NCBI RefSeq assembly: GCF_000240225.1
Contig: NZ_AGUD01000210.1
Location: 1 to 41,027, forward strand
Length of the DNA: 41,027 nt
Direction: 5' to 3'
Source of the DNA: Patulibacter medicamentivorans
GTDB lineage: Bacteria > Actinomycetota > Thermoleophilia > Solirubrobacterales > Solirubrobacteraceae
A program made the position numbers and the translations under genes. The notes beneath the pieces are model-generated. The model saw only the letters and a list, made by a program, of their open reading frames with translations, was not told the origin of the DNA and made no database searches. Shown piece by piece: positions 19,444 to 28,966 of the stretch. Position 1 is the stretch's first letter. Every line of letters begins with the position of its first letter.

Positions 19444-20310
19444 ATGGGCGTTCTTCCTAATTCACCGGAGCGGGCCTACGTCGTGGCGGCGACGCCCCGG
19501 AGCGGGAGCACGCTCCTCTGCGAGACCCTACGGGCCAGCGGGGTCGCGGGCCGGCCGGAGGAGCCGTTCCAGCGGCTCCGGGACAGCGGCCTGTCGCATC
19601 AGCCGCGCGACTACTTCCGCGGCGTCGACGACCCCGAGCTGCTGGCGCTGCTGCCGGAGCGGCGACCCGGCGCGCCGATCGACGCCGACGACGCGCGCGA
19701 GCGGCTGACCCGGGCCCTCGCCGAGGACACGACCGCCAACGGCGTCTTCGCGACCAAGCTGATGTGGGGCTACCTGCCCGACTTCCTCGCCGGGATCCGG
19801 GCGATCACCGGCGACGACGGCGACGACCTGGCGACGCTGCGGTCCGCGTTCGGCCGCGACCTGCGGTTCGTCCAGGTCCGGCGGCGCGACAAGGTCGCCC
19901 AGGCGGTGTCGCTGTGGCGGGCGATCCAGACCCAGCAGTGGCGGGACGAGGGCTCCACCCGTCCCGCCCGCGTCCCGGGGCCGGACTCGGCCTTCCGCGA
20001 CGCCGCCCCGACCGAGGCCGAGCCGGTCTACCACCACGGCGCGATCGCCCACCTGCGCGACCTGCTGGCCGCCGGCGAGGCGGCCTGGACGGCCTGGTTC
20101 GCCGACCACGGGATCGCCCCGGTCCGCGTGGTCGTCTACGAGCAGCTGGTCCCCGCGCTCGGGCCGACCGTCCGCGAGCTGCTGGGCGAGCTGGGGATCG
20201 ACGACCCGCCCGCCGAGGGCTTCGACCGGCCGCGGATGCAGCGGCAGTCGAACGGCACCTCGGCCGCCTGGCGCGAGCGGTTCCTGGCCGAGGAGGCCGC
20301 GGGCGGATGA
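19444..20310 (+). CDS. Stf0-type sulfotransferase
   Basis: A 288-aa PAPS-dependent sulfotransferase. The 5'-phosphosulfate loop is at residues 17-24 (TPRSGSTLL), followed by CETLRASGVAGRPEE, the Stf0/trehalose 2-sulfotransferase signature. The 3'-phosphate-binding part is RRRDKVAQAVSLWRAIQTQQW. In mycobacteria Stf0 sulfates trehalose for sulfolipid. Whether this one uses trehalose, another sugar or a lipid is open. Its stop overlaps the ATG of the APS kinase that makes its donor PAPS. The leaderless start and the shared -10 box with the sulfatase are notable. Confidence 0.93.
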   Translation: MGVLPNSPERAYVVAATPRSGSTLLCETLRASGVAGRPEEPFQRLRDSGLSHQPRDYFRGVDDPELLALLPERRPGAPIDADDARERLTRALAEDTTANGVFATKLMWGYLPDFLAGIRAITGDDGDDLATLRSAFGRDLRFVQVRRRDKVAQAVSLWRAIQTQQWRDEGSTRPARVPGPDSAFRDAAPTEAEPVYHHGAIAHLRDLLAAGEAAWTAWFADHGIAPVRVVVYEQLVPALGPTVRELLGELGIDDPPAEGFDRPRMQRQSNGTSAAWRERFLAEEAAGG

Positions 20311-20972
20311 GCGACCACGCCGATCCGCTGCGCAGCGCCGAGCAGCACAGCGGCGAGCGCCGCAGCCCCCACGTCAAGTGGCACGACGGGCAGCTCCCGC
20401 GCGAGGAGCGCTGGCGGATCCTCGGGCAGCGCGGGGCGACGGTCTGGCTCACCGGCCTGCCCGCCTCCGGCAAGTCGACGATCGCCGCCGAGCTCGAGCG
20501 GGCGCTGGTCGACGACGGCCGGGTCGCCTACCTGCTGGACGGCGACAACGTCCGCCACGGGCTCTCCGGCGACCTCGGCTTCGACCGTCAGGGCCGCAGC
20601 GAGAACGTCCGTCGCGTCGGCCACGTGGCGCGGTTCTTCGCCGACGCCGGAGCGGTCGCGGTCGTCTCGCTGGTCTCGCCGTTCCGCGACGACCGCTGGT
20701 GGGTGCGGGCCCTGCACGACGCGGCCGAGCTGCCGTTCGTCGAGGTCTACGTCGACACCCCGCTCCAGGAGTGCGTCCGTCGCGACCCGAAGGGCCTCTA
20801 CGCCCGCTCGCAGGCCGGCAGCCTGCCGGACATGACGGGGGACGGCTCGCCGTACGAGCCGCCGCTGCAGCCCGAGCTGCGGATCCGGACGGCCGAGCAG
20901 TCGGTCGCGGATGCCGTCGCCCGCCTGCGGGAGCTGCTCGACGGGCCCGGCGCGGCCGCGCCGACGGCCTGA
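20307..20972 (+). CDS. cysC: Adenylylsulfate (APS) kinase
   Basis: A 221-aa P-loop kinase that phosphorylates APS to PAPS. Walker A is GLPASGKST at 50-58, followed by DGDNVRHGLSGDLGFD, SENVRRVGHVARFFADAG and VDTPLQECVRRDPKGLY, all CysC blocks. The N-terminal 25 residues are a charged extension. The ATGA overlap with the sulfotransferase gene couples them, so the PAPS produced is most likely for sulfation. CysN in this window has no fused kinase domain, so this is the only PAPS source seen here. A weak 6-bp hairpin (20979-20997) follows. Confidence 0.96.
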   Translation: MSDHADPLRSAEQHSGERRSPHVKWHDGQLPREERWRILGQRGATVWLTGLPASGKSTIAAELERALVDDGRVAYLLDGDNVRHGLSGDLGFDRQGRSENVRRVGHVARFFADAGAVAVVSLVSPFRDDRWWVRALHDAAELPFVEVYVDTPLQECVRRDPKGLYARSQAGSLPDMTGDGSPYEPPLQPELRIRTAEQSVADAVARLRELLDGPGAAAPTA

Positions 20973-21018: not shown

Positions 21019-21054
21019 ATTCCTGATTGGAATAGGGAAATGCTGCATCGGAAT
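21019..21054 (+). promoter_or_regulatory. Tandem operator upstream of cysJI
   Basis: ATTCC-N5-GGAAT is perfect at 21019-21033. A second, degenerate copy with GGAAT at 21050-21054 (ATGCT-N5-GGAAT, then GCC) is centred 21 bp further on. The same arrangement and spacing occurs before cysH at 24920-24955. Two helical turns between centres suggests two dimers on one face. The regulator is unknown; the half-site resembles those of Rrf2-type repressors such as CymR, which is inference. Confidence 0.65.
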
Positions 21055-21077
21055 GCCGATACGGGTGCCGTAGCCCC

Positions 21078-21202
21078 GTTCCGGCCGTAAACTCCGGAAC
21101 TCGTATCCTCTTTTTCCCTCTTCGCGCCGCCGCCTCGCGGGCCGCTGGCCCGCGAATCCCGCTCCGCGCCTGACGGCCGCCACGACCCTCGCTCTCGACG
21201 AC
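21078..21202 (+). promoter_or_regulatory. cysJ leader with inverted repeats
   Basis: GTTCCGG-N9-CCGGAAC (21078-21100) is followed by TATCCT (21104-21109), a -10 candidate. A perfect hairpin CGCGGGCC-GCT-GGCCCGCG (21136-21154) comes next, and then CU-rich sequence up to the GTG at 21203. There is no Shine-Dalgarno. TAAACT at 21088-21093, in the loop of the first repeat, is an alternative -10. Confidence 0.4.
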
Positions 21203-23062
21203 GTGTCCTCCCCTCTTCCGACCCTCACGACCGATCAGCAGGAGCACGTCCAGCGTCTGGCGGCGGCGCTCGACCGCGACCAGGCGATCTGGGTCAGCGG
21301 CTACTTCGCCGGCCTCGCCGCGCAGGGAGCGTCGGCGTCCGCCGCCACGATCGCGAGCGATGGCGCCGGCGTCGCCCAGCCGACCGCGGTCGCGCCCCCG
21401 GTCGCGCCGTCGACGCGGCTGCTGACCGTCCTCTTCGGCACCGACACCGGCAACAGCAAGGAGCTGGCCGGCCAGCTCGCCGATGCCGTCCGCCCGCACG
21501 GCATCGAGGCCAAGGTCGTCGACATGGCCGACTACAAGCCGCGCGCGCTGAAGGATGAGCAGGACCTGGTCGTCGTCACCGCGACGCACGGCGAGGGCGA
21601 CCCGCCCCCGAACGCGATCGGCTTCTTCGAGTTCCTCGGGGGCCGCAAGGCGCCCAAGCTGCCCGGGGTCCGGTTCGCGGTCCTGGCGCTCGGCGACTCG
21701 ACGTACGAGCACTACTGCTCCGCCGGCCGCCAGGTCGACGAGCGGCTCGAGGAGCTCGGGGCCGAGCGGCTGGCCGACCGCGTCGAGTGCGACGTCGACT
21801 ACGAGGACGACGCCGCGGCCTGGATCGCCGACGTCGCCGGTCGGCTCGCGCCGACCGAGGCGCCGGCGGGAGCCGGCGCGCCCGCGCCGAACGGCACCGG
21901 CCCGGCGCTGAACGGCAGCGCGGCCGGGTCCGGCAGCGAGGTCGCGCACGGCAAGAAGCACCCGTTCACGGCGCCGATCCTCGACAACGTCGTCCTCACC
22001 GGGCGCGGTTCGACCAAGGAGACCCGCCACGTCGAGCTGTCGCTGGAGGGCTCCGGCCTGACCTACGAGCCGGGCGACGCGCTCGGCATCGTGCCCGGCA
22101 ACGACCCGGCGCTCGTCGAGCGGCTGCTCGACCGCCTGTCGCTGCCGGCCGACGCGCCGGTGACGACGAAGCAGGGCCCGGTCCCGCTCGTCGACGCCCT
22201 GACCGCGACCTTCGAGATCACCGCGGCGACCCCGCGCTTCCTCGGGCAGTGGGCGGAGCTCAGCGGCGCCGAGGAGCTGGCGGCGCTCCGCGACGGCGAC
22301 GCCAAGGCCCGCACGGCCTACTTCCACGAGCACCACGTGCTCGACATCGTCGAGCGGTTCCCGGTGCCGGGGCTCCAGGCCGAGCAGCTCGTCGCCGGCC
22401 TGCGCCCGCTCCAGCCGCGGCTGTACTCGATCGCCTCGAGCCTGGCGGCGGCGCCGGACGAGGCCCATCTGACGGTCAGCACCGTCCAATACGACCTGCA
22501 CGGCCTGGGCCGGACGGGCGTCGCCTCGGGCCACCTCGCCCGCCTCGGCGGCGACGAGGACGCGGTCGTCCCGGTCTACGTGCAGGCCAACGAGCACTTC
22601 CGCCTGCCGGGCGACGACGTGCCGATCATCATGGTCGGGGCCGGCACCGGCGTGGCGCCGTACCGCGCGTTCATGCAGGAGCGCGAGGCGCGGGGCGCCG
22701 AGGGCCGCTCGTGGCTGTTCTTCGGCGAGCGCAACTTCCGCAGCGACTTCCTCTACCAGGTCGAGTGGCAGCAGCTGCTGAAGGACGGGGTCCTGAGCCG
22801 CCTGGATCTGGCGTTCTCGCGCGATGCCGGCCCCAAGGCCTACGTCCAGGACCGGATCCGCCGAGCCGGCCGCGACGTCTACGCGTGGCTCGAGGAGGGC
22901 GCGCGGATCTACGTCTGCGGCGACGCGACCAACATGGCTCCCGACGTCGACGCCACCCTGGCGGAGATCGTCACCGAGCACGGCGGCGTCGACCACGAGG
23001 GCGCCCAGGAGTACCTCTCCGCGCTGAAGCGCGACCACCGCTACCTGCTCGACGTCTACTAG
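21203..23062 (+). CDS. cysJ: NADPH-sulfite reductase flavoprotein subunit
   Basis: A 619-aa diflavin reductase that passes electrons from NADPH through FAD and FMN to the haem subunit CysI. A 70-aa N-terminal helix region is followed by a flavodoxin domain at about 72-215 (FGTDTGNSKELA, TATHGEGDPPPNA, ALGDSTYEHY). A short Ala/Gly-rich linker follows. The FAD/NADPH module begins about residue 250 (RLYSIASSL, GVASGHLA, MVGAGTGVAPYRAFMQEREARG, FFGERN, YVCGDATNM), and the C-terminus ends in Tyr. GTG is the start; no ribosome site is seen. CysI follows 41 bp later. Confidence 0.95.
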   Translation: MSSPLPTLTTDQQEHVQRLAAALDRDQAIWVSGYFAGLAAQGASASAATIASDGAGVAQPTAVAPPVAPSTRLLTVLFGTDTGNSKELAGQLADAVRPHGIEAKVVDMADYKPRALKDEQDLVVVTATHGEGDPPPNAIGFFEFLGGRKAPKLPGVRFAVLALGDSTYEHYCSAGRQVDERLEELGAERLADRVECDVDYEDDAAAWIADVAGRLAPTEAPAGAGAPAPNGTGPALNGSAAGSGSEVAHGKKHPFTAPILDNVVLTGRGSTKETRHVELSLEGSGLTYEPGDALGIVPGNDPALVERLLDRLSLPADAPVTTKQGPVPLVDALTATFEITAATPRFLGQWAELSGAEELAALRDGDAKARTAYFHEHHVLDIVERFPVPGLQAEQLVAGLRPLQPRLYSIASSLAAAPDEAHLTVSTVQYDLHGLGRTGVASGHLARLGGDEDAVVPVYVQANEHFRLPGDDVPIIMVGAGTGVAPYRAFMQEREARGAEGRSWLFFGERNFRSDFLYQVEWQQLLKDGVLSRLDLAFSRDAGPKAYVQDRIRRAGRDVYAWLEEGARIYVCGDATNMAPDVDATLAEIVTEHGGVDHEGAQEYLSALKRDHRYLLDVY

Positions 23063-23103
23063 ATGCCGCCCGCCCGCCCCCCTGCCCGGCCGAGGTGACC
23101 GCC

Positions 23104-24855
23104 ATGACCCCGAAGACGACGACCACCCCCGACGTCGACCGCAGCCGCGACCTCTCGCAGCCGCTGGAGAAGCTCGCGCCCGAGGAGCGGCTGAAGGCCG
23201 GCAGCGACTACCTCGCCGGCACGATCGCCGACGACCTCATCGACGAGATCACCCTCGCCGTCGACGAGAACAACAACAAGCTCATGAAGTTCCATGGGAT
23301 CTACCAGCAGGACGACCGCGACCTCCGCGACGAGCGGCGCCGTCAGAAGCTGGAGCCCTTCTTCACCTTCATGCTGCGCGGTCGGATGCCCGGCGGCGTC
23401 TGCACGCCCGAGCAGTGGCTGAAGATCGACGAGCTCGGGCGCACCCACGGCAACGACCAGTTCCGGCTGACGACGCGCCAGACCTTCCAGTTCCACTACC
23501 TGGTGCGGACCGCCCTGCGCGAGGTGATGGTCGGGCTGCGCGACGTCGGGCTCGACGGGAAGGCCGCCTGCGGCGACGTCGCCCGGACCGTGATGAGCGG
23601 CGTGCACCCGGGGCTCTCCAAGCTCCACAAGCAGGTCTACGAGCAGGCCCGGATCGCGAGCGACCACGTGATCCACAAGACCAGCGCCTACGAGGAGGTC
23701 TGGTTCGGCGAGAAGCCGAAGCAGCCGCGCGGCGAGGACGAGGAGCCCTTCTACGGCAAGCAGTACATGCCGCGGAAGTTCAAGATCGGCTTCGCGGTCC
23801 CGCCGAGCAACGACATCGACATCTACAGCCAGGACCTCGGCTTCGTCGCGATCGCCAGCCGCGGCAAGCTCAAGGGCTTCAACGTCGTGATCGGCGGCGG
23901 CATGGGCCGCACCGACCGCGCCCCGGAGACCTACCCGCGCCTCGGCGACGTCATCGGCTACATCGAGGCCAAGGACCTGATCCCGACGCTCGACGCCGTG
24001 ATGGGCGTCCAGCGCGACTACGGCGATCGCGTCACCCGCGCCCACGCGCGCTTCAAGTACACGATCGACGACAAGGGCCTCGACTTCGTCAAGGGCGAGA
24101 TCGAGCGGCGCCTCGGCTTCGAGCTGGCGCCGGCCAAGCGGTTCGCGTTCACGTCCAACGGCGACCAGCTCGGCTGGACCACCGGCGACGACGGCCTGGA
24201 GCACTTCACGCTCTTCATCGAGAGCGGCCGCGTGATCAACCGCGGCGACCGGCGGCTGATGGACGGCCTGCGCGCGATCGCGCAGACCGGCACGTGCGTC
24301 TTCCGGCTGACGCCGAACCAGAGCGTGATCCTCTCGGACATCCAGCCGGAGGATCGCCCCGCGATCGAGGCGCTGCTGGCCGAGCACGGCATCGACAACA
24401 CGCCGACGAAGGGCCGCAGCGCGCTGCGGCTCAACTCGATGGCATGCGTGGCGATGCCGACCTGCGGGCTGGCGATGGCCGAGGCCGAGCGCTACCTGCC
24501 GGACCTGATCACCAAGATCGAGGGCCTGCTGGAGCAGAACGGCCTGATGGAGGAGCCGATCACGATCCGGATGACCGGCTGCCCGAACGGCTGCGCCCGG
24601 CCGTACATCGCCGAGATCGCCCTCACCGGCCGCGCCCCGGGCAAGTACAACCTGTACCTCGGCGCCGGCTTCCACGGCCAGCGGCTGAACAAGATGGTGC
24701 GCGAGAACGTCGGCGAGGACGTGATCCTCGAGGTCCTCGGCGAGGCGCTCGGCCGCTACGCGCAGGAGCGCGAGGACGGCGAGCGGTTCGGCGACTTCGC
24801 GATCCGCGCGGGGATCGTCCCCGAGGTCACCGAGGGGCGCTTCTTCAACGACTGA
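23104..24855 (+). CDS. cysI: Sulfite reductase hemoprotein (NADPH-dependent type)
   Basis: A 583-aa sirohaem/4Fe-4S protein that makes the six-electron reduction of sulfite to sulfide. The cluster and sirohaem Cys are C448 and C454 (ACVAMPTCGLAMAE) and C493 and C497 (TGCPNGCARPY). The substrate-binding Arg/Lys blocks include FRLTTRQTFQFH and the duplicated ferredoxin-like halves, plus VIGGGMGR. Length and the KFHGIYQQD-type N-terminus fit CysI rather than the ferredoxin-dependent NirA/Sir form common in actinobacteria, and cysJ beside it agrees. GAGGTG six bases before the ATG is a clear ribosome site. A strong hairpin follows the stop. Confidence 0.96.
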   Translation: MTPKTTTTPDVDRSRDLSQPLEKLAPEERLKAGSDYLAGTIADDLIDEITLAVDENNNKLMKFHGIYQQDDRDLRDERRRQKLEPFFTFMLRGRMPGGVCTPEQWLKIDELGRTHGNDQFRLTTRQTFQFHYLVRTALREVMVGLRDVGLDGKAACGDVARTVMSGVHPGLSKLHKQVYEQARIASDHVIHKTSAYEEVWFGEKPKQPRGEDEEPFYGKQYMPRKFKIGFAVPPSNDIDIYSQDLGFVAIASRGKLKGFNVVIGGGMGRTDRAPETYPRLGDVIGYIEAKDLIPTLDAVMGVQRDYGDRVTRAHARFKYTIDDKGLDFVKGEIERRLGFELAPAKRFAFTSNGDQLGWTTGDDGLEHFTLFIESGRVINRGDRRLMDGLRAIAQTGTCVFRLTPNQSVILSDIQPEDRPAIEALLAEHGIDNTPTKGRSALRLNSMACVAMPTCGLAMAEAERYLPDLITKIEGLLEQNGLMEEPITIRMTGCPNGCARPYIAEIALTGRAPGKYNLYLGAGFHGQRLNKMVRENVGEDVILEVLGEALGRYAQEREDGERFGDFAIRAGIVPEVTEGRFFND

Positions 24856-24890
24856 CGCCCGGCGGCGCGACGGCGCGCCGGGTCGGGCGC

Positions 24891-24916
24891 CCGCAAGCGC
24901 CGCGTCGCGCTTGCGG
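24891..24916 (+). terminator. Hairpin after cysI
   Basis: CCGCAAGCGC and GCGCTTGCGG pair perfectly around a 6-nt loop, 35 bp after the stop. A weaker GC hairpin precedes it. The cysH operator begins 4 bp beyond. Confidence 0.75.
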
Positions 24917-24919
24917 TGA

Positions 24920-24955
24920 ATTCCAGTCAGGAATGAAACGATGCCGCATTGGAAT
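24920..24955 (+). promoter_or_regulatory. Tandem operator upstream of cysH operon
   Basis: ATTCC-N5-GGAAT is perfect at 24920-24934. A near-copy, ATGCC-N5-GGAAT, is at 24941-24955, again 21 bp centre to centre as before cysJ. A possible -10, TACTTT (24981-24986), lies downstream, so the second site would overlap the -35 region and a bound protein would probably repress. Confidence 0.65.
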
Positions 24956-24988
24956 GCCCGGAAATCGGGTAGTGCTTTGCTACTTTTG

Positions 24989-25057
24989 ATGGTCCGTTCG
25001 CCGTCGCGGCTCCCTCTCGCGGCGGCACTCTCCCTCTCGGACCGAACGCCGTCATGA
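24989..25057 (+). CDS. Leader peptide ORF overlapping cysH
   Basis: A 22-codon frame starts at ATG 24989 and ends with TGA at 25055-25057, sharing ATGA with the cysH start. The peptide is rich in Ser (5) and Leu (4). cysH itself has no good Shine-Dalgarno, so coupling to this frame would explain its translation. It spans the hairpins described next, an arrangement used by ribosome-mediated attenuators. It is unproven: the frame is short and its own start has only a -10-like box nearby. Confidence 0.35.
   Translation: MVRSPSRLPLAAALSLSDRTPS
24991..25043 (+). promoter_or_regulatory. cysH leader RNA structure
   Basis: GGTCCG (24991-24996) pairs with CGGACC (25038-25043). Inside it GCCGTCGCG (25000-25008) pairs with CGCGGCGGC (25018-25026) with one G-U pair. 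The decamer CTCCCTCTCG occurs twice, 20 nt apart (25010 and 25030), once in each loop region. Confidence 0.4.
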
Positions 25058-25755
25058 GCCTCATCTCCGACAACCCGGCGACCGCCGCCCCGGCCGACCT
25101 CGTGCTTCCCGACCTCGAGGCCGCGTCGGCCGCCGAGGTCGTGGCCTGGGCGCTGGACGAGTTCCACCCGGGGATCGCGCTCGCCTGCTCGTTCCAGAAG
25201 GAGGAGGCGGTGCTGCTGGACCTGGTCTTCGAGGCTCGTCCGGACGCGCGGGTCTTCGCGCTCGACACCGGCCTGCTGTTCGACCAGACCTACGACCTCT
25301 GGAAGCAGGTCGAGGAGCGCTACTCGACCACGATCGAGCGCTGGCAGGGGCCGACGCTGGCCGAGCAGGCCGCTCGCCACGGCGACAAGCTGTGGGCGAC
25401 GAACCCGTCGCAGTGCTGCGGGATCCGCAAGGTCGAGCCGCTGCGCCGCGGCCTCTCGACGCTCGACGCCTGGGTCACCGGCATCCGCCGCGACCAGTCG
25501 CCGGCCCGCGCCGGCGCCGCCAAGGTCGAGTGGGACGACCAGTTCGGCCTGGTCAAGGTCAACCCGCTGGCCGACTGGAGCGACAAGGACGTCTGGCGCG
25601 AGATCGCCAAGCGCGACCTGCCCTACAACCCGCTCCACGACCAGGGCTACGCGTCGATCGGCTGCGTCCCGTGCACGCGCCCCGGCGAGGGTCGCGAGGG
25701 CCGCTGGGCCGGCAGCGACAAGGTCGAGTGCGGGCTGCACCAAGAGGACGCCTAG
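25054..25755 (+). CDS. cysH: Assimilatory APS reductase, 4Fe-4S type
   Basis: A 233-aa reductase that converts activated sulfate to sulfite. It has the CSFQKEE loop, DTGLLFDQTY, and both Cys pairs that bind the 4Fe-4S cluster: C121-C122 (SQCCGIRK) and C204/C207 (CVPC). The catalytic Cys226 lies in the C-terminal VECGLH. Cluster-bearing CysH proteins generally use APS, whereas those without it use PAPS, so sulfate reduction here likely bypasses PAPS. It heads the operon cysH-TSUP-cysD-cysN and lies behind the tandem operator. Confidence 0.95.
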   Translation: MSLISDNPATAAPADLVLPDLEAASAAEVVAWALDEFHPGIALACSFQKEEAVLLDLVFEARPDARVFALDTGLLFDQTYDLWKQVEERYSTTIERWQGPTLAEQAARHGDKLWATNPSQCCGIRKVEPLRRGLSTLDAWVTGIRRDQSPARAGAAKVEWDDQFGLVKVNPLADWSDKDVWREIAKRDLPYNPLHDQGYASIGCVPCTRPGEGREGRWAGSDKVECGLHQEDA

Positions 25756-25785: not shown

Positions 25786-26673
25786 GTGGAGCCGCAGTAC
25801 ATCGGCTTCGGCCTGCTGGTCGGGGTCCTGGTCGGCCTGACCGGGATCGGCGGCGGGTCGCTGATGACGCCGCTGCTGATCCTCGGCGGCGGGGTGCCGC
25901 CGGCGATGGCGATCGGCACCGACCTGGCCTACGGCGCGATCACCAAGACCGTCGGCGGCTGGCGCCACCTGAAGATCGGGACCGTCGACCTGGGCGTCTC
26001 GAAGTGGCTGGCCTTCGGCTCGGTCCCGGGATCGCTGGTCGGCGTCTGGCTGACCCACCAGCTCCAGGGCTGGGTCGGCGCGCGGTTCGACGACGTGCTG
26101 CTGGTCGGCGTCGCGGTCGCGCTGTCGATCGTCGCCGCGGCGATCCTCTACCGGGTGCTGTTCATGCCGGGCGCCGCCGACCGCGAGCGGCACACCGTGA
26201 CGCTGTCGCGCCGGGTCAAGGTCCAGGCGGTCACGATCGGGGCCGTGATGGGCGCGATCCTCGGCATGACCTCGGTCGGCTCCGGGGCGCTGATCGGGCT
26301 GGCCCTGATCCTCGTCTTCCGGCTGACGCCCCACCGGGTCGTCGGCACCGACGTCTTCCACGCCGCGATCCTGCTCTGGACCGCGGCCCTCGCCCACGGC
26401 GTCGCCGGCAACGTCGACCTGGTCCTGACCGGGACGTTGCTGCTCGGCTCGATCCCCGGGGTCTGGATCGGCACCTGGCTGCTGCCGCGGGTCCCGGCGG
26501 CGGGCCTGCGCCCGGCGCTGGCGTGCGTGCTGCTGGCCAGCGCGCTGGCCGTGCTGTCGAAGGCCGGCGCCGAGATCCCGCCGTGGGTCATCATCAGCGC
26601 CCCCATGGCCGCCGGCTGCACCGCCGCGATCGTCCACCGTCGTCGCACCCGCCTGGAGGCGGTTCCCGCATGA
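25786..26673 (+). CDS. TSUP (TauE/SafE) family membrane transporter
   Basis: A 295-aa protein with about seven or eight membrane helices. The glycine-rich family motif GLTGIGGGSLMTPLL lies near residues 18-32, and its internal repeat is near 165-180 (GMTSVGSGALIG). Family members move sulfite, sulfate, thiosulfate or organosulfonates. Sitting between cysH and cysD, it may import sulfate or export surplus sulfite; direction cannot be told. GTG 25786 is the start, 30 bp after cysH. Its stop overlaps the cysD ATG (ATGA). No CysTWA or SulP sulfate importer is seen in the window. Confidence 0.9.
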   Translation: MEPQYIGFGLLVGVLVGLTGIGGGSLMTPLLILGGGVPPAMAIGTDLAYGAITKTVGGWRHLKIGTVDLGVSKWLAFGSVPGSLVGVWLTHQLQGWVGARFDDVLLVGVAVALSIVAAAILYRVLFMPGAADRERHTVTLSRRVKVQAVTIGAVMGAILGMTSVGSGALIGLALILVFRLTPHRVVGTDVFHAAILLWTAALAHGVAGNVDLVLTGTLLLGSIPGVWIGTWLLPRVPAAGLRPALACVLLASALAVLSKAGAEIPPWVIISAPMAAGCTAAIVHRRRTRLEAVPA

Positions 26674-27611
26674 GCACCTCGTCCGCATCCGCCACCGGCG
26701 GGCTCTCCAAGATCCGCGCCCTCGAGGCCGAGGCGATCCACGTGATGCGCGAGGTCGCCGCGGAGTTCGAGCGCCCGGCGCTGCTGTTCTCCGGCGGCAA
26801 GGACTCGATCGTGCTGCTGCGGCTGGCGGAGAAGGCCTTCCGCCCCGGTCGCTTCCCGTTCCCGCTGGTCCACGTCGACACCGGGCACAACTTCCCCGAG
26901 GTGATCGAGTTCCGCGACCGGCGGGTCGCCGAGCTCGGCGAGCGGCTGATCGTCGCCCACGTCCAGGACACGATCGACGCCGGCCGGGTCGCCGACGGCT
27001 TCGACACCGACCAGCTGAAGGGCTCCCGCAACCAGCAGCAGACGCAGACGCTGCTGGACTGCATCGAGGAGCACCGCTTCGACGCCTGCTTCGGCGGGGC
27101 CCGCCGCGACGAGGAGCGGGCGCGGGCGAAGGAGCGGATCATGAGCTTCCGCGACGACTTCGGCGGCTGGGACCCGAAGAACCAGCGACCCGAGCTGTGG
27201 AACCTGTTCAACACCCGGCTGCGGCAGGGCGAGAACGTGCGCGTGTTCCCGATCTCGAACTGGACCGAGCTCGACGTCTGGCAGTACATCGCGGAGGAGC
27301 AGCTGGAGCTGCCGCCGATCTACTTCGCCCACGAGCGCGACGTCGTCCGCCGCGACGGGATGCTCTACGCGATCAGCGAGTTCCTGCAGCCGCGCGAGGG
27401 CGAGGGCGAGGTTGCCGAGCGCCTCAGCGTCCGCTACCGGACCGTCGGCGACCTGACGATCACCGGCGCGGTCGAGTCGACCGCGACCACGCTCGAGCAC
27501 GTGGTCGCCGAGATCGCCGCGACCCGGGTGACCGAGCGGGGCGAGACCCGCGCCGACGACCGCGCCTCCGAGGCCGCGATGGAGGACCGCAAGGTCCAGG
27601 GGTACTTCTAG
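26670..27611 (+). CDS. cysD: Sulfate adenylyltransferase small subunit
   Basis: A 313-aa PP-loop ATP pyrophosphatase that adenylates sulfate to APS. The nucleotide loop LLFSGGKDSIVLL is at about 43-55. HVDTGHNFPEVIEFRD, FGGARRDEERARAKER, WNLFNTR and FPISNWTELDVW are standard CysD blocks, and the protein ends with DRKVQGYF. The start overlaps the transporter stop and its own stop overlaps the cysN start, so the three are translated as a chain. CysN supplies the GTPase that drives the reaction. Confidence 0.97.
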   Translation: MSTSSASATGGLSKIRALEAEAIHVMREVAAEFERPALLFSGGKDSIVLLRLAEKAFRPGRFPFPLVHVDTGHNFPEVIEFRDRRVAELGERLIVAHVQDTIDAGRVADGFDTDQLKGSRNQQQTQTLLDCIEEHRFDACFGGARRDEERARAKERIMSFRDDFGGWDPKNQRPELWNLFNTRLRQGENVRVFPISNWTELDVWQYIAEEQLELPPIYFAHERDVVRRDGMLYAISEFLQPREGEGEVAERLSVRYRTVGDLTITGAVESTATTLEHVVAEIAATRVTERGETRADDRASEAAMEDRKVQGYF

Positions 27612-28966
27612 TGTCCGACCTGTACGCCGACGTCACCCGCGACGAGCGCCCCGCCGACCTGCTGCGCGTCGCCACCGCCGGCTCCGTCGACGACGGCAAG
27701 TCGACGCTGATCGGGCGCCTGCTCTACGACACCAAGCAGGTCCTGGCCGACCAGCTGGCCCAGGTCGAGGCGGCCTCGGTCCGCCGTCACGGCGAGGGCG
27801 TCGTCGACCTCTCGCTGCTGACCGACGGCCTGCGCGCCGAGCGCGAGCAGGGGATCACGATCGACGTCGCCTACCGCTACTTCACGACCGGCGACCGCAG
27901 CTTCATCCTGGCCGACACCCCCGGCCACCTGCAGTACACGCGCAACATGGTCACCGGCGCCTCGACCGCCGACCTGGCGATCGTGCTCGTCGACGCCCGC
28001 AACGGCGTGGTCGAGCAGACCCGGCGGCACACCTTCATCTCGGCGCTGCTCGGGCTACGGCACGTGACCTTCGCCGTCAACAAGATGGACCTCGTCGACT
28101 GGGACGAGCAGCGCTTCCGCGAGATCGAGGCCGAGACGACGCGGATGTCCGCGCAGCTCGGGATCCCCGACATCCACGTGATCCCGATCAGCGCGCTGGA
28201 GGGGACCAACGTCGTCGATCGCGGCGCCTCGCCCGACTGGTACCGCGCCGACGGCGAGCACCCGACGCTGCTGGAGCACCTGCAGACCGTCGAGGTCGCC
28301 AGCGACCGCAACCTCACCGACCTGCGGTTCCCGGTCCAGTGGGTGATCCGGCCCGGTGGCGGGAGTGGCGGCGGGGACGCCATCGCGGCGGCGAGCCACG
28401 ACCTGCACGACTACCGCGGCTACGCCGGCCAGGTCGCCGGCGGGGTCCTCCGCCCCGGCGACGCGGTCCAGGTCCTGCCCTCGGGCGCCCGCTCGACGAT
28501 CGCGCGGATCGAGACGCTCGACGGCGACCTCGACGAGGCCGCTCCGCCGCTGTCGGTGACGGTCCACCTGGCCGACGACGTCGACGTCAGCCGCGGCGAC
28601 GTGATCGCCGGGATCGGGGACGAGGCCACGGGCGGCACGCCGCCGCAGGTCCTGCGCGAGCTCGAGGCCGACGTCTGCTGGATGAGCGACCGGCCGCTGC
28701 GTCCCGGCGCCCGGCTGCTGATCAAGCACACGACGACGACCACCGCCGCGCGCGTCGAGGCGCTGCTGGATCACGTCGACCTGCACACGCTGGAGCGCCA
28801 CGCCGACGCCCCGGCCGAGCTGGGCCTGAACGAGATCGGGCGCATCCGGCTGCGCGTCAAGCGCCCGCTGATCGCCGATCCCTACGACCGCGACCGCCAG
28901 ACCGGGGCCTTCATCCTGATCGACGAGGGCACGAACGACACGGTCGCCGGCGGCATGATCCGCTGA
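27611..28966 (+). CDS. cysN: Sulfate adenylyltransferase large subunit (GTPase)
   Basis: A 451-aa translational GTPase relative. G1 is TAGSVDDGKST near residue 24, G3 is ADTPGHLQYTRNMVTGAS and G4 is NKMDLVDW. Two EF-Tu-like beta domains follow. It ends without a fused APS kinase, unlike the CysNC form of some bacteria; CysC is a separate gene at 20307. GTG overlaps the cysD stop by one base (TAGTG). Within the G-domain to domain-2 boundary, a short Gly/Ser insertion (GGGSGGG) is present. Confidence 0.96.
   Translation: MSDLYADVTRDERPADLLRVATAGSVDDGKSTLIGRLLYDTKQVLADQLAQVEAASVRRHGEGVVDLSLLTDGLRAEREQGITIDVAYRYFTTGDRSFILADTPGHLQYTRNMVTGASTADLAIVLVDARNGVVEQTRRHTFISALLGLRHVTFAVNKMDLVDWDEQRFREIEAETTRMSAQLGIPDIHVIPISALEGTNVVDRGASPDWYRADGEHPTLLEHLQTVEVASDRNLTDLRFPVQWVIRPGGGSGGGDAIAAASHDLHDYRGYAGQVAGGVLRPGDAVQVLPSGARSTIARIETLDGDLDEAAPPLSVTVHLADDVDVSRGDVIAGIGDEATGGTPPQVLRELEADVCWMSDRPLRPGARLLIKHTTTTTAARVEALLDHVDLHTLERHADAPAELGLNEIGRIRLRVKRPLIADPYDRDRQTGAFILIDEGTNDTVAGGMIR

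What the first reader, a model, noticed from the sequence alone, without database searches (positions are those of the whole stretch)
21019..24955. Same tandem operator controls two sulfur-assimilation operons
ATTCC-N5-GGAAT, followed exactly 21 bp later (centre to centre) by a degenerate copy ending GGAATGCC, occurs before cysJI (21019-21054) and before cysH-TSUP-cysD-cysN (24920-24955). Flanking bases are also conserved (ATGCYGCATYGGAATGCC). Two sites on one DNA face before two operons of the same pathway is strong evidence of a dedicated sulfur regulon. No regulator is encoded nearby. The half-site resembles that of CymR-like Rrf2 proteins, but that assignment is a guess.
Basis: partly seen in the sequence, partly recalled or inferred. 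Interest (0 to 1): 0.8.

Follow-up and report, generated by a model that had tools for sequence, protein, structure and literature searches.

The report
Sulfur operons share LysR-type operators
An actinobacterium marks two sulfur-assimilation operons with the same paired DNA site, and comparison with its relatives points to one likely controller, a distant cousin of the sulfite sensors YeiE and FinR, which has yet to be tested at the bench.

Summary
In detail: ATTCC-N5-GGAAT followed exactly 21 bp on by a degenerate copy precedes cysJI and cysH-TSUP-cysD-cysN. In the 8 held genomes of the genus (Patulibacter) 25 of 30 exact ATTCCN5GGMAT places lie within 300 bp upstream of a LysR-type regulator gene, cysH, cysJ, a SLAC1/TDT exporter, pntA, a sulfate-binding protein or a ferredoxin (set partly drawn up after seeing the hits). 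A 21-bp pair precedes cysH in 6 of 8 genomes, but cysJ only here.

The guessed regulator (CymR-like Rrf2) is not supported. The dyad is a T-N11-A LysR box. It lies just upstream of one LysR-type gene in 7 of 7 genomes of the genus that have it (0-2 mismatches), and perfectly in 10 of 13 orthologues outside it. G004, without an orthologue, has Rrf2 proteins but no exact site. The protein's best structural match is the LysR regulator 8sbf, and it keeps the pocket Glu of YeiE, though it is below the YeiE family cut-off.

Best reading: a YeiE/FinR-like LysR regulon, possibly sulfite-responsive. Binding, direction and signal are untested.

The parts
21019..21033 (+). upstream operator of cysJI, ATTCCTGATTGGAAT (perfect dyad, T-N11-A)
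21040..21054 (+). promoter-proximal degenerate operator of cysJI, ATGCTGCATCGGAAT
21088..21093 (+). possible -10 (TAAACT) of cysJI; a guess by eye
   Evidence: one search found no consensus promoter
21203..23062 (+). cysJ, sulfite reductase flavoprotein (TIGR01931, over cut-off)
23104..24855 (+). cysI, sulfite reductase haemoprotein
24920..24934 (+). upstream operator of the cysH operon, ATTCCAGTCAGGAAT
24941..24955 (+). promoter-proximal operator of the cysH operon, ATGCCGCATTGGAAT
24981..24986 (+). likely -10 (TACTTT) inside TTTGCTACTTTTG, which recurs with small changes before cysH in 8 of 8 genomes of the genus; inferred
   Evidence: one search found no consensus promoter
25054..25755 (+). 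cysH, PAPS/APS reductase
25786..26673 (+). TauE/TSUP permease (PF01925)
26673..27611 (+). cysD (start inferred from the matched part of the longer ORF 26004-27611)
27611..28966 (+). cysN (start inferred from the matched part of the longer ORF 27197-28966)

Best explanation
The four sites are operators of one LysR-type regulator encoded elsewhere in the genome (G000 contig C45, 4450-5382, minus strand), a distant relative of YeiE and FinR, that holds a sulfur regulon. At cysH (and cysJI in this genome) two sites lie 21 bp apart, centred near -66 and -45 if the -10 guess is right: the layout of a LysR recognition site plus activation site, so that the protein should activate there. At its own gene one site abuts a TAnnnT hexamer in 5 of 7 genomes, which should repress. 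The likely signal is sulfite, made through CysH and used by CysJI. Shown: the sites, their spacing, their distribution, their tie to the LysR gene, the conserved Glu. Inferred: binding, direction of control, transcription starts and ligand.
For: Sites. Distribution: 25 of 30 exact ATTCCN5GGMAT places in 8 genomes are upstream of regulon genes. Pair at 21 bp before cysH in 6 of 8 genomes, with the first half-site 45 or 46 bp before a conserved TTTGCTA-like element in all 6; in 2000 first-order Markov resamplings no spacing from 15 to 60 was shared by more than 1 of 8. Site upstream of the LysR gene in 7 of 7 genomes of the genus that have it, 6 at 0-1 mismatch and 1 at 2, against 0 at 0-1 and 16 at 2 among 6000 overlapping control windows of 306 bp from 20 loci. 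Perfect site upstream of 10 of 13 orthologues (46% identity or more) outside the genus; no perfect site in 14 loci of more distant LysR paralogues. SLAC1 genes over 250 bits: 6 of 6 have a site at 0-1 mismatch; the SLAC1 gene of G004, which lacks the LysR orthologue, has none. G004 has no exact site in its genome. Divergent neighbours of LysR orthologues: 1 YeiH family and 4 SLAC1 of 8 examined. Structure: 8sbf is first in phmmer and Foldseek; YeiE domains are 2nd to 4th in phmmer. Glu154 aligns with the residue changed in 7fdf ('E145S mutant ... YeiE, a sulfite sensing' regulator); it is invariant in 21 orthologue rows, 10 of 10 orthologues and 0 of 13 paralogues. Relatives: YeiE represses its own gene, responds to sulfite, and regulates cysJI and yeiH (PMC12880088: abstract and passages).
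Against: No binding or expression data. 32% identity to E. coli YeiE. NCBIfam ranks the selenium-associated LysR family first (158.6 bits, cut-off 250) and YeiE second (137.9, cut-off 480): neither cut-off is met. In Foldseek the YeiE domains rank 36 and 44 of the 50 shown, behind CcmR, CbnR, OxyR and others. The E. coli yeiE-yeiH region lacks the motif (best 4 mismatches), and the FinR box TATCCATATTCTGGATA differs (PMC5302815 passages). G005 has the LysR gene but no site before cysH or cysJ; G002 none before cysJ. Outside the genus 0 of 8 cysH upstreams printed have a site at 0-1 mismatch. The window's own genome has no SLAC1 gene and no site at 0-1 mismatch before its sulfate-binding protein. 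The ferredoxin site is in 1 of 6 readable genomes. Layouts are not uniform: G000's own LysR promoter has two sites 24 bp apart, SLAC1 genes have a second GGAAT at 17 bp in 4 of 6 and no clear -10 at the site. In Salmonella the yeiE mutant grows normally on sulfate and YeiE acts in sulfite stress (PMC12880088 passages). Sulfite switching on cysH would be positive feedback. Consensus scans found no promoter.
Confidence: 0.78

Rival explanations
1. The sites are operators of a CymR-like Rrf2 repressor that senses cysteine status.
For: Rrf2 proteins are present in 8 of 8 genomes of the genus.
Against: No site at 0-1 mismatch in the 19 loci, 17 of them over the Rrf2 cut-off (of 18 such genes; one had no locus). 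G004 has Rrf2 proteins over the cut-off but no exact site. The sites track the LysR gene. The dyad is a T-N11-A box.
Confidence: 0.05
2. Another LysR-type protein of this genome (a CysB/Cbl-like one, or the second LysR gene beside the candidate) binds the sites, and the candidate gene is only one of its targets.
For: The loose first look listed 69 candidates in G000; a second LysR gene lies next to the candidate.
Against: Orthologues outside the genus keep the site before this LysR gene although their neighbours differ. The nearest solved relatives are 8sbf and YeiE; CysB is far weaker (31.2 against 90.5 bits).
Confidence: 0.12
3. The regulator is this LysR protein but the signal is another sulfur metabolite (O-acetylserine, thiosulfate, APS, PAPS) or a selenium compound, so that control is ordinary feedback of assimilation.
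For: Genes that make sulfite (cysH, cysD, cysN) are in the regulon. The protein is distant from YeiE (32%), and its first NCBIfam match is the selenium-associated LysR family.
Against: The pocket Glu and neighbouring motifs of YeiE are kept. SLAC1/TDT and YeiH-family transporters, of which YeiH gives sulfite resistance in Salmonella (PMC12880088), are near or under the site in relatives.
Confidence: 0.35

Closest known systems
YeiE (Escherichia, Salmonella, Cronobacter), sulfite-sensing LysR regulator
   Same: LysR domains, among the nearest solved relatives by sequence, second in NCBIfam, pocket Glu kept, site before its own gene, cysJI in the regulon, YeiH-family neighbour in one relative (PMC12880088 passages).
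   Different: 32% identity, below the YeiE cut-off, different residues in the recognition helix, different operator, regulon extended to cysH-TSUP-cysDN, pntA and (in congeners) SLAC1/TDT genes.
FinR (Pseudomonas aeruginosa)
   Same: Called a YeiE homologue in PMC12880088; two adjacent dyads; controls itself and a gene of electron supply, fprA (PMC5302815 passages).
   Different: Box TATCC-N7-GGATA with overlapping dyads. That 8sbf (A. baylyi ACIAD0746) is FinR is recalled, not shown by a call.
CysL (Bacillus subtilis), LysR activator of cysJI
   Same: LysR activator of sulfite reductase genes (PMC5322559 passages).
   Different: Neither sequence nor operator compared here.
CymR (Firmicutes), Rrf2 repressor of cysteine metabolism
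   Same: Cysteine regulon under one operator type (PMC3519770 passages; its box is recalled).
   Different: Other protein family; sites here do not track Rrf2 genes.

Membership tests
LysR-type regulon | Regulator with LysR HTH and LysR substrate domain | tested here: met
   PF00126 and PF03466 over cut-off
LysR-type regulon | T-N11-A dyad operator | tested here: met
   ATTCC-N5-GGAAT contains T-N11-A; read directly
LysR-type regulon | Operator at the regulator's own promoter | tested here: met
   7 of 7 genomes of the genus with the gene, 10 of 13 orthologues outside it
YeiE/FinR family | Nearest solved relatives are FinR/YeiE | tested here: met
   8sbf first in phmmer and Foldseek; YeiE entries 2nd to 4th in phmmer, but 36th and 44th in Foldseek. 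That 8sbf is FinR is recalled
YeiE/FinR family | Pocket Glu (E145 in the title of 7fdf) | tested here: met
   invariant in 21 rows; 10 of 10 orthologues, 0 of 13 paralogues
YeiE/FinR family | NCBIfam YeiE equivalog cut-off | tested here: not met
   137.9 bits against 480: not filed as YeiE itself
YeiE/FinR family | Adjacent yeiH or sulfite exporter | tested here: inconclusive
   of 8 divergent neighbours examined, 1 YeiH family, 4 SLAC1, 3 neither; in the window's genome the neighbour is another LysR gene
YeiE/FinR family | Binds sulfite | not testable with these tools
   needs protein
YeiE/FinR family | Same operator as FinR or the E. coli yeiE-yeiH region | tested here: not met
   FinR TATCC-N7-GGATA; E. 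coli region best 4 mismatches
CymR/Rrf2 | Rrf2 regulator present | tested here: met
   8 of 8 genomes
CymR/Rrf2 | Operator tracks the Rrf2 gene | tested here: not met
   no site at 0-1 mismatch in 19 loci; G004 has Rrf2 and no exact site
CysB/Cbl | Nearest sequence relative | tested here: not met
   CysB 1al3 at 31.2 bits against 90.5 for 8sbf; CysB not among the 25 NCBIfam rows shown of 51
Selenium-associated LysR (NF040786) | NCBIfam cut-off | tested here: not met
   158.6 bits against 250, the best of all NCBIfam scores for this protein
CysL | Orthology to B. subtilis CysL | not tested
   sequence not fetched

The most novel reading that the evidence does not exclude
One sulfite-reading LysR protein governs sulfate assimilation in Patulibacter from PAPS/APS reduction to sulfite reduction, together with exporters and the NADPH-making transhydrogenase, and uses the number and spacing of its operators (single at its own gene, 21 bp at cysH, 17 bp at most SLAC1 genes) to set different outputs. 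Sulfite, and not a cysteine precursor, would then be the set-point signal of the pathway in these actinobacteria, with an operator code distinct from those of YeiE and FinR.
Probability: 0.35. Interest if true: 0.6.

Novelty: new variant of a known kind. Interest (0 to 1): 0.45.

Why it matters
I know of no described regulator of sulfate assimilation in Patulibacter or its order; three searches of the held open-licence library (listings only) showed none, which is weak evidence of absence. The finding names one regulator gene, one operator and a target list, so that the regulon can be tested directly. It would extend YeiE/FinR-type control from sulfite stress to an assimilation pathway, and it poses a clear question: why would a sulfite-type sensor govern the enzyme that makes sulfite?

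Tried and rejected
Rrf2/CymR: tested and set aside. Strict tandem pattern over 61 genomes: only the window's own. Counts of perfect sites do not by themselves separate genomes: of the 41, 8 of 11 with the LysR orthologue (over 200 bits) and 14 of 30 without it have at least one. Of the perfect-site loci outside the genus I read seven away from the LysR gene and recognised no sulfur gene by eye; the others were not read. The built-in reversed control (TAAGG-N5-CCTTA) is probably rarer in GC-rich genes than the motif, so I rest on the windows; these overlap and are mostly coding. The control was biased (it held loci fetched for the motif) and was replaced. The set of regulon genes was partly drawn up after seeing the hits: without the window's genome and the single sulfate-binding-protein place, 17 of 22 places in the other genomes remain upstream of the LysR gene, cysH, cysJ, SLAC1 or pntA. 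The six genomes with the cysH pair are close relatives, not six independent events; the same holds for L028 and L029. Ferredoxin: 1 of 6 readable. Sulfate-binding protein: 1 of 6 readable. pntA: 3 of 5 genomes with a close orthologue at 0-1 mismatch, 2 mismatches in G006, none in G004; the 43-44% homologues of G001, G003 and G007 were not counted. Two weak SLAC1 genes (82 and 87 bits) have no site. Rows dropped: L179, L180 and L194 (contig ends cut the flank, the windows printed are misplaced); cysJ of G006 (partial) and G003 (not found); L075, L081 and L103 (cut flanks); L038 left out because it holds a stop. Five of the 30 places are unexplained: G003 C28 (two), G003 C401, G002 C1:1488625, G006 C184. 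The YeiE structure paper (PMC8931317) is not held, so the pocket residue rests on the title of 7fdf and the alignments. PMC9068703 (passages) gives no YeiE motif.
Full report
What is there. The window (41,027 bases, 73% G+C) holds a Stf0 sulfotransferase gene and cysC, then cysJI, then cysH-TSUP-cysD-cysN. Before cysJI lie ATTCCTGATTGGAAT (21019-21033) and ATGCTGCATCGGAAT (21040-21054); before cysH lie ATTCCAGTCAGGAAT (24920-24934) and ATGCCGCATTGGAAT (24941-24955). The step is 21 bp in both. In the whole genome 13 places match ATTCCN5GGAAT with up to one mismatch, 5 of them perfectly, against 2 for the reversed control.

Whose genome. The LysR gene discussed below brought in named records of Patulibacter at 73-78% identity, and of Conexibacter arvalis and other Solirubrobacterales at 47-53%, and several of these contigs have the same lengths as those of genomes labelled g1. 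So g1 is Patulibacter. The window's own record is unnamed.

Where else the site lies. In the window's genome the other perfect sites are upstream of a LysR-type regulator gene (contig C45), upstream of pntA, and between a ferredoxin gene and a divergent gene. In the 8 genomes of the genus the exact pattern ATTCCN5GGMAT has 30 distinct places, the control none. Of these, 25 lie 13 to 276 bp upstream of the matched part of a gene of one set: the LysR gene, cysH, cysJ, SLAC1/TDT exporter, pntA, sulfate-binding protein, ferredoxin. Five are unexplained. The set was partly drawn up after seeing the hits; leaving out the window's genome and the single sulfate-binding-protein place, 17 of 22 remain.

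The pair. Before cysH a GGAAT-type half-site is followed by GGAAT exactly 21 bp on in 6 of 8 genomes, the first lying 45 or 46 bp before a TTTGCTA-like element in all 6. In 2000 first-order Markov resamplings no spacing was shared by more than 1 of 8. The exceptions are G004, which has no orthologue of the LysR gene (best match 37% identical), and G005, which has one. If TACTTT (24981-24986) is the -10, the site centres fall near -66 and -45, where LysR proteins place recognition and activation sites (general knowledge). Before cysJ the pair was seen only in this genome; G001 and G007 have a single site, G002, G004 and G005 none. A 21-bp step also occurs before pntA in G002 and, with a degenerate first copy, before the sulfate-binding protein in G005.

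The regulator. The site stands just upstream of the LysR gene in 7 of 7 genomes of the genus that have it, abutting a TAnnnT hexamer in 5 of 7; the window's own genome has two sites there, 24 bp apart. Outside the genus it is perfect upstream of 10 of 13 orthologues of 46% identity or more; L024, L026 and L110 lack it, as do the 40-42% homologues L114-L116. Fourteen loci of more distant LysR paralogues hold no perfect site. Among 6000 control windows from loci picked without regard to the motif, 0 reach 0-1 mismatch and 16 reach 2. SLAC1 genes over 250 bits have the site in 6 of 6 cases, with a further GGAAT at 17 bp in 4; the SLAC1 gene of G004 and two weak ones have none. The window's genome has no SLAC1 gene.

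What the regulator is. It has the LysR HTH and substrate domains. Its predicted structure (mean pLDDT 89.3) matches 8sbf best; Cronobacter YeiE domains come 36th and 44th of the 50 shown, at 28-29% identity, but 2nd and 3rd by sequence, E. coli YeiE 4th. It is 32% identical to E. coli YeiE. Entry 7fdf is titled the E145S mutant of the sulfite-sensing YeiE domain; the aligned Glu154 is invariant in 21 orthologue rows and absent at that column from 13 of 13 paralogues. Of 8 divergent neighbours of orthologues outside the genus, one is YeiH family (L023), four are SLAC1 (L025, L027, L030, L044) and three neither. In Salmonella YeiE represses its own gene without sulfite and activates the divergent yeiH with it, and YeiE is said to control cysJI in E. 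coli and Cronobacter; but the Salmonella mutant grows normally on sulfate (PMC12880088: abstract and passages). The protein here is below the cut-offs of both its best NCBIfam matches, the selenium-associated LysR family and YeiE, and its box differs from FinR's (PMC5302815 passages) and from the E. coli yeiE-yeiH region. I call it YeiE/FinR-like, not YeiE.

How it may work. Bound at its own -10 the protein keeps itself low. At cysH, and here at cysJI, two dimers bind on one face 21 bp apart and can touch polymerase. A sulfur compound, sulfite being the best guess, changes the bound form. Reduction of sulfite, export in the congeners with SLAC1, and NADPH through PntA then fit one response. 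That cysH and cysDN belong to it is the weak point for sulfite as inducer: either sulfite lowers activation there, or the signal is another compound. Binding, direction and ligand are inference.

Rivals. Rrf2/CymR: Rrf2 proteins exist in 8 of 8 genomes, but the site does not track them, and G004 has them without any exact site. Another LysR protein: possible, less likely. Another ligand: open.

Known or new. LysR control of sulfite reductase genes is known (YeiE; CysL as cited in PMC5322559 passages). New here, as far as I could see, are the operator, the phased pair, the wider regulon and the lineage. Library searches on Patulibacter with sulfate assimilation or LysR, and on LysR with sulfate assimilation in Actinobacteria, listed no relevant paper (listings only).

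Noticed in passing
L193 (G000 contig C294) and L189-L192, L195: Sulfate-binding-protein promoters share a CCTAATATGC-like element in most and, just after it, a dyad such as AAACTCGATCAGGGTTT (GAATCCCGATC...GATCGGGATTC in the window's genome): a candidate operator of a second sulfate-transport regulator.
   Followed up: no
window 19444-20310 and 20391-20972: A Stf0 sulfotransferase gene followed by cysC directly before the cysJI operator, suggesting that PAPS may also be spent on a sulfated product.
   Followed up: no
L196-L198, L202: SLAC1 promoters carry a second GGAAT exactly 17 bp after the site, not 21 (4 of 6).
   Followed up: partly
L023, L025, L027, L028, L029, L030, L044: A CGACTGG/CCAGTCG-like element (shorter in L027) lies near the operator in the intergenic regions of LysR orthologues outside the genus; role unknown.
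   Followed up: no
L127 and L132 (G003 contig C28, 4650 and 4707): Two near-identical copies of a stretch with the exact site, 57 bp apart, with no sulfur gene recognised beside them: probably an unrelated repeat.
   Followed up: no
L001 1842-2780: A second LysR-type gene lies upstream of the candidate regulator gene in the window's genome.
   Followed up: partly
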